Source: Isoptericola cucumis | Lineage (GTDB): Bacteria > Actinomycetota > Actinomycetes > Actinomycetales > Cellulomonadaceae | DNA: 64,000 bases | NCBI RefSeq assembly: GCF_014635665.1 | Contig: NZ_BMDG01000007.1 | Coordinates: 1 to 64,000, forward strand | Direction of reading: 5' to 3' | Shown here: positions 12,463-19,023 of the stretch, in pieces | Layout: every line of letters begins with the position of its first letter | Numbering within the stretch: position 1 is the first letter of the stretch | Translations under genes and position numbers: made by a program | Notes under the pieces: generated by a model | Told to the model about the DNA's origin: nothing | Seen by the model: the letters and a program-made list of their open reading frames with translations, nothing else | The model's database searches: none

Positions 12463-15484
<3,022 letters not shown>

Positions 15485-15486
15485 CG

Positions 15487-15544
15487 CCGAACAGGCAGTT
15501 GCGCTCGGATTCGTCGCCCAAAGCAAGCGGAACTGCCTGCTCGG
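15487..15544. repeat. Palindromic intergenic repeat, copy A
   Basis: The left arm at 15487-15505 and right arm at 15526-15544 are inverted copies matching at 17 of 19 positions, around a ~20-base loop. The left arm reads CCGAACAGGCAGTTGCGCT. The same element, with only a few changes in the arms, occurs at 16701-16758 on the other side of the AbiEi/DUF559 gene. It could act as a terminator for glf, but matching arm sequence at two sites is more than a terminator needs. Confidence 0.85.
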
Positions 15545-15612
15545 GCTTGGCTGGTCGGGAGTTCTCCACAGACCGGCCGCCACCCCCCGCGGAGGACGGT
15601 CGTCCTGGTGGG

Positions 15613-16695
15613 ATGAGCGCCGTGCGCACCTTCGCCGAGATCCCCGCCGCGCTCCTCGCGCTCGCCGACGCACAGGAAGGGCTGCTGAGCGTGCAGCAGT
15701 GCGACCGGAACGGTGTCGACCACTCGCGGCGGACACACCGGGTACGCGCCGGGCTCTGGCGCGTGGCTGCCCGCGGTGTCGTCGACACGTGCCCGGTCCT
15801 GCCTGGCGCCCGCTCCGCCTCGGACCTCCCGCAGCGGCCCGTCGCCCCCCTGGTGGTCACGGACGACGCAACCGCCTGGGCGCGGTCTCGCGAGGCGTGG
15901 GCGGCAGCTCGACGGTCCCGCTCGCCGGCGGACCGGCTGTTCGACCATCTGCGCCGTCGGTCGGCATGGGCAGGGATGCTCGCCTATGGACCGGACGCGA
16001 TCGCGGTCGCCTCGTGCGCGCTCGCCTGCCACGGGGTCGAAGGGCTCCCGGTGCACATCGCACCGCAAGCGGCGTTGCCCACCGGATCGAGACGACGAAG
16101 CAAGGCGGGGGTGCGGCTCAGGCAGTTCGACGACGGCATGATGACGGTCGCGTTCGGAGACCGTCGGACGGGCGTGCGCCGGATCGCGAGCGCGGAGCGG
16201 GCGTTGGCGCAGGCAGTGCCGGAGCTGCCGGCGATGCACGGTCTGGCGGTGCTGGACTCGGCGCTGCGGCTCGAGGTCGTGAGCCGGGCCGGCGCCGCAC
16301 GGGCTCACGACCACGCCCGAGGACGACGGGGCGTGGCGGCCCGGCACGAGCTGTGGGACCTCGCGGACCCACGCGCGGAGTCGCCGCTGGAGTCGTTCGG
16401 GCGTTGGCAGTGCATCGAGGCGGGCGTTCCGCCGGACACCCTGCAGCGTCCCGTGCGCGATCGACACGGCCGGCTGCTCGGCGTCGGCGACATGGCGTGG
16501 GAGCTGAACGGGGGCGGCTGGCTCGTCGTCGAGATGGACGGGTACACCTGGCACGAGGGTGACGCCGGGCGGGCGCGCCGTGACCGTGATCGCGACAACG
16601 ACTTCGCCGCCGCGGGCATCCATGTGCTGCGTTTCGATGCCCGGCACGTGCGGGAGCATACGGTCGGGACCCGGGTGCGTTCCTTCCTCGGCTGA
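15613..16695 (+). CDS. AbiEi-type N-terminal domain plus DUF559 (Vsr-like) nuclease-fold protein
   Basis: A 360-residue protein. Residues ~8-55 resemble the AbiEi antitoxin N-terminal winged helix (LLSVQQCDRNGV, then HRVRAGLWRVAARGVV). The C-terminal ~100 residues match DUF559, a PD-(D/E)xK fold related to very-short-patch repair nucleases: GDMAWEL, LVVEMDGYTWHE, an Arg/Asp repeat (ARRDRDRDNDF) and IHVLRFDARHV. The Asp, Glu-x-Asp and His positions expected for metal binding are present. Such AbiEi/DUF559 proteins are common and multi-copy in actinobacteria with unknown function. No AbiEii toxin gene is adjacent. The gene sits alone between two copies of one palindromic repeat, 69 bp and 6 bp from its ends. 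The ATG at 15613 was chosen as the first ATG after the repeat. Confidence 0.8.
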   Translation: MSAVRTFAEIPAALLALADAQEGLLSVQQCDRNGVDHSRRTHRVRAGLWRVAARGVVDTCPVLPGARSASDLPQRPVAPLVVTDDATAWARSREAWAAARRSRSPADRLFDHLRRRSAWAGMLAYGPDAIAVASCALACHGVEGLPVHIAPQAALPTGSRRRSKAGVRLRQFDDGMMTVAFGDRRTGVRRIASAERALAQAVPELPAMHGLAVLDSALRLEVVSRAGAARAHDHARGRRGVAARHELWDLADPRAESPLESFGRWQCIEAGVPPDTLQRPVRDRHGRLLGVGDMAWELNGGGWLVVEMDGYTWHEGDAGRARRDRDRDNDFAAAGIHVLRFDARHVREHTVGTRVRSFLG

Positions 16696-16700
16696 CGTCG

Positions 16701-16758
16701 CCGAACAGGCGGTTCCGCTCGTCTTGCCCCGCCGATACGAGCGAAACTGCCTGCTCGG
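16701..16758. repeat. Palindromic intergenic repeat, copy B
   Basis: The left arm at 16701-16721 and right arm at 16738-16758 are inverted copies matching at 18 of 21 positions. Compared with copy A, the left arms agree at 19 of 21 bases and the right arms at 18 of 19, while the loops differ. The conserved part is therefore the stem, in the same orientation at both sites. It starts six bases after the AbiEi/DUF559 stop and ends 12 bases before the stop of the convergent acyltransferase. Confidence 0.85.
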
Positions 16759-16769
16759 CGGGGTGGTAG

Positions 16770-18878
16770 TCAGTCCAGCGCCCCCGCGCGGCGCAGCTCG
16801 CGCAGCAGGTACGGCGCCATGGTCTTGGTGTAGGTCGTGGTGAGGTGGTGGGCGTCGCGGTAGACGTTGACCCCGCCGATCACCGCCGGGCAGGTGACGT
16901 CCCGGCAGTAGAAGTCCGTGAGGTCGACGTACGACGCGCCCGGCACCGACTCGGCCGCCGCGGCGAGCGTCTGGTGCTCGGGGAGGACCTGCCGGCGCGG
17001 GGACGCGCAGCGGTCCGCCTCGGCCCGGGTGACCTCGCCCAGGCACCGGGCCGGCTCGCGCGGGTGGGACGGGTTGTCGGAGAGCGCCACGACGGGCACG
17101 CCCCGGTCGGCGACCGGTCGCCATGCCGTCGCCATCTCGCGGGCCTGCTGGTCGGCGCCGCCCGTGAGCTTTCCCTGGTAGGCGGTCGTGACGACGAGGT
17201 CGGTCTCGGCCGCGTGCCGCACGAGCCACGGCGCGAGCCGGTCCCGCCACCGTTCGCAGGTGCGGGCCTGCTCGCCCTCGGGGTCGGAGGCGACGGCGCC
17301 CGTGCTCCAGGCGCACGCGGACTTGACGTGCGCCGTCAGGCTGATCCGTCCCTGGGCGGCCAGCCCGACGAGCGCCGGCATCATCGCCCGGGCGTGCGAG
17401 TCGCCCACCAGCACGACGTGGGGCACGTCCGCGTCGTCGACGGGGCCGAAGGTGCAGTCCTTCAGCTCGTCCTCGTCGACGTCCACCCAGCAGCCCGGGT
17501 AGTCCGCCTTGTCCTCGCTGACGGCCTCCGGGGACGGCACGACCATCCGCTCGAGCCCGGGGTTCTCGCAGGGCTCCTCCGGGTCCATGGCGGCGGCGCC
17601 GAAGCATTCCGGCTCGTCCCGGACGAGCTGCTGGGCGAGCTCCCCCTGCTTCTTCGTCTCGTGTGCCGCGACCCCCCACGCGCAGCCGGCGGCGAGGGCG
17701 AGGACCGCGGCCCCGGCGGCGGTGAGGCCGAGGGCCCGACCGGTGCGCTGCATCCCCCACCGGTGGGAGAACCGGGCCGGGTCCTCGACGAACCGCTTGG
17801 TCGCCACGGACAGCAGCACGACGCCCGCCAGCAGCGCGACGCGTTCGGCGAGCCCGGGCTCGTGACGCAGGACGAACGGGGCGAGGACGATCGCCGGCCA
17901 GTGCCACAGGTAGAGCGCGTACGAGATCTCGCCGGCGTACTGGACGGGCCGCCAGGTGAACAGCGGCGCGGGGGACAGGCGCCCCGCCGGGGTGCCGGCC
18001 CAGATCACGGCGGCCGTGCCGAGCACGGGCACCAGCGCGGCCGTCCCCGGGAACGGGGTCTCGGCGTCGTACACGAAGGCGCACGCGACGACGACCGCCA
18101 GCCCGGCCCAGCTCACCGGCGTCCGCCAGGCGTCCGGGACCGGGCGCCGGCGCTGCCGGGCGAGCGCCAGCGCGAGCAGCGCCCCCGCGCCGAACTGCCA
18201 GGCGCGCGTCGTGGTGACGAAGTAGGCCGACGAGGGGTTCTCGGTCGTCAGCCACAGCGAGTACCCGAACGAGGCGACGGAGGCCACGCCCAGCACCGCG
18301 GCCGTCACGCCCCGCGCGGAGCGGCCCGCGCGTGCGGCGCCGAGCGTCGCGAGCAGGACGAGCAGCGGCCAGACGAGGTAGAACTGCTCCTCCGCCGAGA
18401 GCGACCAGTGGTGCTGCACGGGCGACGGGTCGGTCTCGGCCGCCAGGTAGTCGACGGCGTCCGCCGCGAGCACCCAGTTCTCGGCGTAGAGGGTGGCGCC
18501 CAGGATCTCCCGGAACCACTGCTGCCACAGGATCGGCGGGACGAGCAGCAGGGTCGCGGCGGCGGAGACCGCGATCACGAGGTAGGCGGCCGGCAGCAGA
18601 CGGCGGGCGCGCCGCGCCCAGAACCGGCCGAGCCGGACCCGGCCGGTCGTCTCCGCCTCCCGCAGCAGGTGGCCGGTGATGAGGAACCCGGAGATGACGA
18701 AGAAGACGTCCACCCCGACGTACCCGCCGGGCAGGCGGCCGGGCCAGAAGTGGAAGGCGACGACGAGGCCGACGGCGAGCGCGCGCAACGCCTGCACCTC
18801 CCACCGCAGGGCGCGCCGGGGCGCGGCGGTGGTGCCGTCGTGCGGTGTCGGTCGGGACTGGTCCAGCGTGTGGCTCAC
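16770..18878 (-). CDS. AT3-SGNH acyltransferase (OafA-like)
   Basis: A membrane protein of 702 residues from the GTG at 18878, or 731 from a GTG at 18965; the shorter form has a GAGG nine bases upstream and loses only disordered sequence. The N-terminal half is an acyltransferase-3 domain of about ten membrane helices: LRALAVGLVVAFHFWPG, GVDVFFVISGFLITGHLL, RRLLPAAY and HHWSLSAEEQFYLVWPL. The C-terminal ~230 residues are a periplasm-side SGNH domain with nucleophile motif VLVGDSHARAM near residue 489 and the closing Asp-x-x-His as DAHHLTTTY. OafA-type enzymes acetylate surface sugars. A paralogue is at 37696-39768. The acceptor is presumably the local glycan. Confidence 0.88.
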   Translation of the reverse strand: MSHTLDQSRPTPHDGTTAAPRRALRWEVQALRALAVGLVVAFHFWPGRLPGGYVGVDVFFVISGFLITGHLLREAETTGRVRLGRFWARRARRLLPAAYLVIAVSAAATLLLVPPILWQQWFREILGATLYAENWVLAADAVDYLAAETDPSPVQHHWSLSAEEQFYLVWPLLVLLATLGAARAGRSARGVTAAVLGVASVASFGYSLWLTTENPSSAYFVTTTRAWQFGAGALLALALARQRRRPVPDAWRTPVSWAGLAVVVACAFVYDAETPFPGTAALVPVLGTAAVIWAGTPAGRLSPAPLFTWRPVQYAGEISYALYLWHWPAIVLAPFVLRHEPGLAERVALLAGVVLLSVATKRFVEDPARFSHRWGMQRTGRALGLTAAGAAVLALAAGCAWGVAAHETKKQGELAQQLVRDEPECFGAAAMDPEEPCENPGLERMVVPSPEAVSEDKADYPGCWVDVDEDELKDCTFGPVDDADVPHVVLVGDSHARAMMPALVGLAAQGRISLTAHVKSACAWSTGAVASDPEGEQARTCERWRDRLAPWLVRHAAETDLVVTTAYQGKLTGGADQQAREMATAWRPVADRGVPVVALSDNPSHPREPARCLGEVTRAEADRCASPRRQVLPEHQTLAAAAESVPGASYVDLTDFYCRDVTCPAVIGGVNVYRDAHHLTTTYTKTMAPYLLRELRRAGALD

Positions 18879-19023
18879 GGTGCGAGGCCTCGTGGTGCGG
18901 GGTCTGGCGGGTGCGTCACGTGCGTCGGATGCCTCCAGCGTGGGGTGCGGGGTGCGACGGGCCACGCTAGCCCGAACCTGTTGCTCCGCCGAACCGGCAG
19001 GTCAGGCGTGTCTGAGGGCCCGG

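What the first reader, a model, noticed from the sequence alone, without database searches (positions are those of the whole stretch)
15487..16758. One gene bracketed by two copies of a conserved palindrome: possible mobile or self-maintaining unit
Seen: an AbiEi/DUF559 nuclease-fold gene lies alone between two ~58-bp elements. Left arms agree at 19/21 bases, right arms at 18/19, loops differ, and orientation is the same. Known: REP palindromes with RAYT transposases show that stem-conserved repeats can be moved by a single endonuclease, and DUF559 is related to Vsr-type nucleases. Inference: this protein may recognise, cut or spread the palindrome. Alternatively the repeats are a REP-like family that the gene landed in.
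Basis: partly seen in the sequence, partly recalled or inferred. Interest (0 to 1): 0.8.

Follow-up and report, generated by a model that had tools for sequence, protein, structure and literature searches.

The report
Nuclease gene framed by matched palindromes
In many actinobacteria a gene for a predicted DNA-binding and DNA-cutting protein is framed by two copies of its own long palindrome, the palindrome also occurs alone at scattered sites, and at the same site in related species the whole unit can be present, flipped, reduced to one palindrome or absent, which points to an unrecognised kind of palindrome-spreading genetic unit.

Summary
In detail: CDS 15613-16695 lies between palindromes 15487-15544 and 16701-16758. 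It is not a local oddity. Of 80 distinct homologs with enough flank, 69 carry matched flanking repeats above every within-gene control; hairpins are about 50 times denser at these genes' ends than farther away. The palindrome differs from gene to gene but matches on the two sides. At three orthologous sites, species show the full unit (in either orientation at two of them), a lone palindrome, a remnant, or nothing. Palindromes also occur without the gene: 13 places in the window's genome for its second element, and up to 166 arm matches per Mycobacterium genome, more where the gene is a closer homolog, relatedness uncorrected. Copies differ by paired changes in both arms. The protein is predicted to be an AbiEi-like part fused to an I-Bth0305I-type nuclease fold. 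Y1 (RAYT) transposases are absent from 8 of 8 genomes tested in the window's family. Best reading: a REPtron-like unit with an unrelated enzyme. Binding, cutting and spreading are inferred. Matching of lone copies to their own genome's gene was mixed.

The parts
15487..15544 (.). left palindrome, arms of about 19-21 bp and a variable middle; starts 2 bp after the glf stop codon
15613..16695 (+). gene for the 360-aa AbiEi-like/nuclease fusion protein (P0001)
15628..16368 (+). [not shown]
   Evidence: family level
16378..16692 (+). [not shown]
16701..16758 (.). right palindrome, starts 5 bp after the stop codon; pairing extends to 16699-16760
14348..15484 (+). left neighbour glf (UDP-galactopyranose mutase), anchor of the orthologous site
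16770..18965 (-). right neighbour, acyltransferase-SGNH protein, convergent; also follows glf at the empty site of G013 and the lone-palindrome site of G003

Best explanation
The stretch is a self-contained genetic unit: palindrome - gene - palindrome. The protein most likely binds its own palindrome as a two-fold complex through the AbiEi-like part (as an AbiEi antitoxin binds a long inverted repeat in its promoter) and nicks or cuts DNA at or near it with the homing-endonuclease-type domain. Repair of these cuts, by copying from another copy or by recombination between palindromes, would spread lone palindromes to intergenic sites, keep copies alike, flip the gene, and delete it to leave one palindrome. 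In organisation it works like a REPtron (RAYT gene plus REP sequences), but with an unrelated enzyme. Shown: matched flanks, gene-specific palindromes, lone copies, presence/absence and both orientations at orthologous sites, paired arm changes, and the two folds by prediction. Inferred: binding, cutting, autoregulation and the way of spreading.
For: Matched flanks: 69 of 80 distinct homologs exceed the largest of 76 within-CDS controls; flank pairs of different elements do so in 62 of 2000. Hairpins of score 18 or more: 1.76 per kb at gene ends, 0.034 per kb beyond 700 bp. Mycobacterium: of the 30 best-matching loci read, 20 have palindromes on both sides, 7 on one, 3 on none (sorted by eye). 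Protein and palindrome similarity are correlated, Mantel rho 0.28, reached by 0 of 2000 permutations, 70 elements. Allelic states: glf site, Cellulosimicrobium site, Promicromonospora site, one lone-palindrome site in Mycobacterium. Copy number: median arm matches 94 in the 8 genomes with gene match E<=1e-130, 13 in 66, 5 in 32, and 2 in 42 genomes without a match; Spearman 0.55. Paired changes: 20 copies, 8 positions and 23 cells, against a shuffle mean of 7.9 and maximum of 14 cells. Folds. E260, D293, D309, H314, D324 in 53 of 53 rows, E307 in 52. AbiEi of S. agalactiae binds inverted repeats at its own promoter (PMC3985639, passages read). No Y1 transposase in 8 of 8 genomes of the window's family.
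Against: No binding or cleavage data. Insertion boundaries and target duplications were not resolved; relatives are too distant. No strain-level polymorphism was available, so movement today is not shown. Inversion and deletion could come from ordinary recombination between repeats. The copy-number link is confounded: the arm pattern was taken from G204, and genomes close to G204 have both the closest gene and the likeliest arms; relatedness was not corrected, and some no-match genomes are incomplete. Three of the 42 no-match genomes have 21, 33 and 61 arms, and G350 has a gene match (1e-117) with no arm. Lone copies resemble their own genome's gene flanks best in G000 (4 of 4), G003 (3 of 3, one tied) and G009 (1 of 1), but not in G014 (0 of 4), G015 (0 of 1), G204 (1 of 8) or G129 (0 of 5); G204 and G129 have a second gene match that I did not test. 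11 of 80 elements fail the flank test; hairpins of score 13 or more stand on both sides in 42, one side in 28 and neither in 12 of 82. Y1 transposases are present in 4 of 5 Mycobacterium genomes tested. No match on plasmids or phages, unlike an active transposon. One of four covariation measures (extra pair types) was reached by 24 of 500 shuffles.
Confidence: 0.6

Rival explanations
1. The palindrome is only the operator of an AbiEi-like autoregulator: the protein binds it to control its own gene, and lone copies are operators of a regulon. Nothing is spread.
For: AbiEi binds inverted repeats at its own promoter; the upstream palindrome ends at a median of 58 bp before the start codon, quartiles 54-79.
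Against: A downstream copy is as regular, median 3 bp after the stop codon. Of 34 palindromes placed (37 tried; rough gene calls), 15 lie between convergent genes, 17 between tandem genes and 2 between divergent genes, which is not where operators usually sit. A nuclease fold with conserved acidic and histidine residues is present. Lone copies come and go at orthologous sites.
Confidence: 0.15
2. The palindromes are host transcription terminators or mRNA-end hairpins that are kept for that use, and the gene is a passenger that often sits between two of them.
For: Many copies lie just after stop codons or between convergent genes; arms change in pairs, as expected if the hairpin matters. A mycobacterial hairpin terminator family (TRIT) is recalled from the RNIE paper, which is not held.
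Against: No terminator-like site with a T-run is found in 15300-16900. Each gene lineage has a private palindrome on both sides, and copy number follows gene similarity. Use as terminators may be secondary and is compatible with the best explanation.
Confidence: 0.12
3. A known mobile element class moves the unit or the palindromes: a RAYT/IS200-type Y1 transposase acting in trans, or another insertion sequence.
For: The layout resembles REPtrons; Y1 matches exist in 4 of 5 tested Mycobacterium genomes.
Against: No Y1 match in 8 of 8 Cellulomonadaceae-type genomes (the window's family) although the same search rang in 5 of 14 control genomes. The flanked genes show no Y1 domain (36 members). 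The IS110-family gene seen with a palindrome starts inside it, as a guest.
Confidence: 0.05
4. Chance or assembly artefact.
For: Short repeats in a high-GC genome.
Against: 0.01 matches expected against 4 found; repeated in separately sequenced genera.
Confidence: 0.01

Closest known systems
REPtron: RAYT (REP-associated tyrosine transposase) gene with REP/REPIN sequences
   Same: One gene for a DNA-cutting enzyme beside palindromic repeats of its own type, with further copies between genes and few gene copies per genome (RAYT side: passages of PMC3116915 and PMC3733652).
   Different: Enzyme is AbiEi-like with a homing-endonuclease-type fold, not HUH/Y1; palindromes are about 45-80 bp and typically stand one on each side; no GTAG tag at the ends of the window copies.
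AbiE type IV toxin-antitoxin system (AbiEi antitoxin)
   Same: AbiEi-like N-terminal part (36 of 36 members match a PADLOC AbiEi model; fold 6y8q); AbiEi binds inverted repeats at its promoter.
   Different: In the window no AbiEii toxin gene beside it; a nuclease fold is added; palindromes on both sides and scattered.
Homing endonuclease I-Bth0305I catalytic domain
   Different: Flanked by palindromes rather than sitting in an intron or intein; the rest of the protein is AbiEi-like.
M. tuberculosis stem-loop family Myt-1 (PMC2267715, passages read) and TRIT hairpins (recalled; paper not held)
   Same: Repeated stem-loops of similar length in mycobacteria.
   Different: Identity with the GAGCAGACGC palindrome was not tested; no nuclease gene is mentioned in the passages read.

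Membership tests
RAYT / REPtron | gene product has the Y1 transposase (HUH) domain | tested here: not met
   Pfam scan of 36 family members at E<=0.01 gives only AbiEi_4, MTES_1575 and DUF559
RAYT / REPtron | gene flanked by palindromic repeats that also occur elsewhere in the genome | tested here: met
   flanks; further copies; for the window's own palindrome only one related lone copy was found
RAYT / REPtron | REP tagged with GTAG at one end | tested here: not met
   window copies read CCGAACAGG...CTCGG
AbiE type IV toxin-antitoxin | adjacent AbiEii toxin gene in one operon | tested here: not met
   neighbours are glf and an acyltransferase; other loci were not scanned for AbiEii
AbiE type IV toxin-antitoxin | AbiEi winged-helix domain | tested here: met
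   at family level, for the model; the window protein alone gave no AbiEi_4 hit
Homing endonuclease | homing-endonuclease catalytic fold | tested here: met
   [not shown]
Homing endonuclease | cuts the empty allele and is copied into it | not testable with these tools
   empty, lone and filled alleles exist but there are no cleavage data
Classical insertion sequence | known transposase family | tested here: not met
   no transposase family
Classical insertion sequence | target-site duplication | tested here: inconclusive
   relatives too divergent outside the genes

The most novel reading that the evidence does not exclude
A new class of genome-resident selfish unit in Actinobacteria: an AbiEi-type DNA-binding protein that has acquired a homing-endonuclease domain spreads and maintains its own long palindrome, with each lineage changing protein and palindrome together; the abundant mycobacterial GAGCAGACGC hairpins are its products, some of them later used by the host.
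Probability: 0.5. Interest if true: 0.92.

Novelty: categorically new. Interest (0 to 1): 0.85.

Why it matters
REP-type palindromes are widespread; the enzyme tied to their spread in the papers I read is the RAYT transposase, and one survey states that a second large class (CGTC REPs) apparently lacks a dedicated transposase (PMC3733652, passages read). A second, unrelated enzyme family that goes with palindromes would show that this lifestyle arose more than once, give a source for many actinobacterial hairpins, and offer matched pairs of protein and DNA site for testing how a DNA-recognition module and its target change together.

Tried and rejected
Chance: rejected. Family restricted to the window's genus: rejected. 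Carriage on plasmids or phages: no match with two queries in plasmids and one in phages. Rfam: only sub-gathering microRNA-type matches in 6 loci, taken as chance hits on hairpins. Defence-system reading: PADLOC matches are AbiEi models, plus one member each for two other models; no AbiEii in the window. Outward extension of pairing beyond the shared core, as a sign of insertion into host hairpins: weak overall (40 pairs; runs of 6 or more in 2 of 80 copies, mean complementarity 0.38), although two lone copies in G000 (L335, L337) have flanks complementary to each other over about 9-11 bp (read by eye). Matching of lone copies to the same genome's gene flanks: mixed; two palindromes of the site were also compared, neither clearly best with its own genome's gene. 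Faulty steps replaced: the control (overlapping stretches in short genes); the column table (mixed registers).

Rows dropped: L063, matched, was not found by my tblastn and was left out (a re-run found only a weak piece); it has no hairpin of score 13. L265 was cut wrongly by my script; by match length (451 of 502 bases) it lacks the palindrome. Of the three sites typed only the first was analysed. At the Cellulosimicrobium site nine more genomes of the family match the joined flanks in one continuous piece and so, by length, hold nothing there; they were not read.

Literature: ten searches. Eight on gene and palindrome terms, one by sequence and one on TRIT. No listed paper linked these genes to palindromes; held more papers (387, 39, 47) than the 12-15 listed. 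Passages were read in seven papers, none as a whole. Subscription papers and preprints are not held, so absence from print is not established.

Full report
OBSERVATION. They agree at 44 of 58 positions, 19/21 in the left arm, 18/19 in the right arm and 7/18 in the middle. Their arms give four matches in 64 kb where 0.01 are expected. Between them lies one gene, CDS 15613-16695 (+), 360 aa. The unit sits between glf and a convergent acyltransferase gene. The window's genus is inferred to be Isoptericola: same-genus genome G017 has a contig of 3,576,703 bases, as has the named record of Isoptericola sp. AK164.

GENERAL LINK OF GENE AND PALINDROME. A search of 58 genomes, the own one included, with the protein gave matches in 25 at E<=1e-20. 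I read 64 places (L063 dropped, see Tried and rejected) and 24 more loci, 21 of them from named records; 82 of these 88 are distinct. Of the 82, 70 have a hairpin of score 13 or more within 260 bp of a gene end: 42 on both sides, 28 on one, 12 on neither. Scored by direct comparison of the upstream and downstream flanks, which also sees decayed palindromes, 69 of 80 distinct elements with enough flank exceed the highest of 76 controls taken inside the genes; flanks of different elements do so in 62 of 2000 random pairs. Hairpins of score 18 or more are found at 1.76 per kb at the gene ends (86 in 48,960 bp) and 0.034 per kb beyond 700 bp (8 in 238,464 bp); the window's own two, at scores 13 and 15, are not among them. 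The palindrome differs from gene to gene while the two sides match. Similarity of proteins and of palindromes is correlated (rho 0.28, 0 of 2000 permutations, 70 elements), carried mainly by the 25 pairs above 65% protein identity. A distant homolog in the window's genome (L105) shows decayed matched flanks too.

OTHER TAXA. A profile search of 296 genomes of the phylum gave four genomes at E<=1e-30: the own one and three of other orders. Two of these belong to one genus, which I take for Mycobacterium because the gene in L149 lies between rpoC and a gene like endonuclease IV (by eye). In that genus 106 of 148 genomes have a homolog at E<=1e-25. Of the 30 best-matching loci read, 20 have palindromes on both sides, 7 on one and 3 on none; the outer arm is mostly GAGCAGACGC or close to it, the inner part varies and tends to match between the two sides (by eye).

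LONE COPIES. In the window's genome the palindrome of a second element (L095) matches 13 places, of which two flank the gene and a third lies about 0.7 kb away; 6 of 18 genomes of the genus match, the other 12 do not. One of the six, G004, has copies but no clearly cognate gene among those I read. For the window's own palindrome I found one related lone copy, 60 bp, at C6:112803, with no homolog of the gene within 1.5 kb. In Mycobacterium, matches of the arm pattern range from 0 to 166 per genome, with at most 3 for the reversed control on both strands together. The median is 94 in 8 genomes with gene match E<=1e-130, 13 in 66 genomes at 1e-100 to 1e-129, 5 in 32 weaker ones and 2 in 42 without a match. 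The pattern was taken from G204, so relatedness to G204 is a confounder that I did not correct; within the 74 genomes at 1e-100 or better the correlation is 0.30. Exceptions are told under evidence against.

ALLELIC STATES. At the glf site (16 of 18 genomes have glf): full unit in five genomes, with the gene along glf in G000, G008 and G007 (its left palindrome decayed) and against it in G010 and G004; a lone 62-bp palindrome directly after the glf stop in G003; a remnant end in G005; and in G013 only 9 bp between the two stop codons. In G012, G009, G002 and G011 glf is followed by what I read as manA, without a palindrome at the junction (window manA by Pfam; the relatives by eye); G010 and G004 have the unit between glf and that gene. 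G017, G016, G015, G006 and a second glf of G005 show neither gene nor palindrome in what was read; their neighbours were not identified. On a glf tree G000 is grouped with G013 (support 86/77) inside one clade that holds every state. At a site in Cellulosimicrobium (15 genomes fetched): gene in one orientation in four, in the other in five, a decayed gene piece in one (G611), a lone palindrome in G610, a degenerate palindrome without gene in G603 (by eye), and neither gene nor palindrome in G035, G666 and G001. At a site in Promicromonospora (5 genomes): unit in G651 and G023 with different palindromes and proteins identical at 217 of 344 aligned columns, a lone palindrome in G653, a short remnant in G650 (by eye) and nothing in G647. 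At one lone-palindrome site in Mycobacterium, of 27 best-matching relatives aligned: 14 have a palindrome (two degenerate), 3 a remnant, 1 unrelated sequence and 9 nothing (sorted by eye); palindromes at this same site have different inner parts in different species, on both arms.

PAIRED CHANGES. Twenty copies of the L095-type palindrome (13 in G000, 6 in G003, 1 in G004) are paired at 95% of cells; 8 positions carry changes on both arms, 23 cells in all, against a shuffle mean of 7.9 and maximum of 14 in 500 shuffles. Three of four measures exceed all shuffles; the fourth, extra pair types, is reached by 24 of 500. Relatedness of the copies is not corrected for. So either the hairpin is under selection or one arm serves as template for the other.

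MECHANISM. Putting these together, I think the protein recognises its palindrome as a pair of subunits and cuts at or near it. Cuts and repair would explain flips, deletions to a lone palindrome, likeness of copies and new copies. None of these steps was observed. Y1 transposases, the enzymes tied to REP sequences elsewhere, are absent from 8 of 8 genomes of the window's family but present in 4 of 5 Mycobacterium genomes tested, so for Mycobacterium a role of a Y1 enzyme is not excluded by this test.

COMPARISON AND NOVELTY. It works like a REPtron but is not one: the Y1 domain and the GTAG tag were tested and not met. It is not an AbiE toxin-antitoxin operon: no AbiEii neighbour in the window. 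It shares a catalytic fold with a homing endonuclease. I found no paper that links these genes with palindromes, within the limits of the library and of the listings seen. I rate it categorically new as a combination of enzyme and repeat, with the mobilising role at 0.6.

Noticed in passing
L170 1501-3012 (G204:C1:900628 onward): An IS110-family transposase gene (DEDD_Tnp_IS110, Transposase_20) begins inside a palindrome, shortly after its left arm; two further arm pairs in G204 are about 1680 bp apart instead of 42, suggesting the same IS at three palindromes; only one was read.
   Followed up: partly
L041, L042, L061, L062, L079 (near acpS): A related lineage of the unit sits beside an acpS-like gene in several genera (named by eye), often with an extra palindrome on the far side of that gene or of its neighbour.
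   Followed up: partly
L095 1444-2243; L096 1476-2253: A third palindrome frames a neighbouring gene of about 203 aa next to the unit in both genomes.
   Followed up: no
L335 and L337 (G000:C2:422394-422534, G000:C1:204690-204830): Two lone palindromes have flanks complementary to each other over about 9-11 bp, as if inserted in the middle of a host hairpin.
   Followed up: partly
L132 (record titled Sphaerisporangium cinnabarinum ATCC 31213): Its contig length (33593) equals that of G606 contig C100, and the genome search puts G606 in the same genus as G608, whose contig length equals that of Cellulosimicrobium funkei JCM 14302 contig4; the title is probably wrong.
   Followed up: no
L105 (G000:C7:186378-191749): A distant AbiEi/REase homolog in the window's genome has decayed but matched flanking repeats.
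   Followed up: partly
PMC4155686, oligonucleotide table: A primer at the M. tuberculosis Rv1219c promoter region contains GCGAGCAGACGCA, the arm of the mycobacterial palindrome.
   Followed up: no
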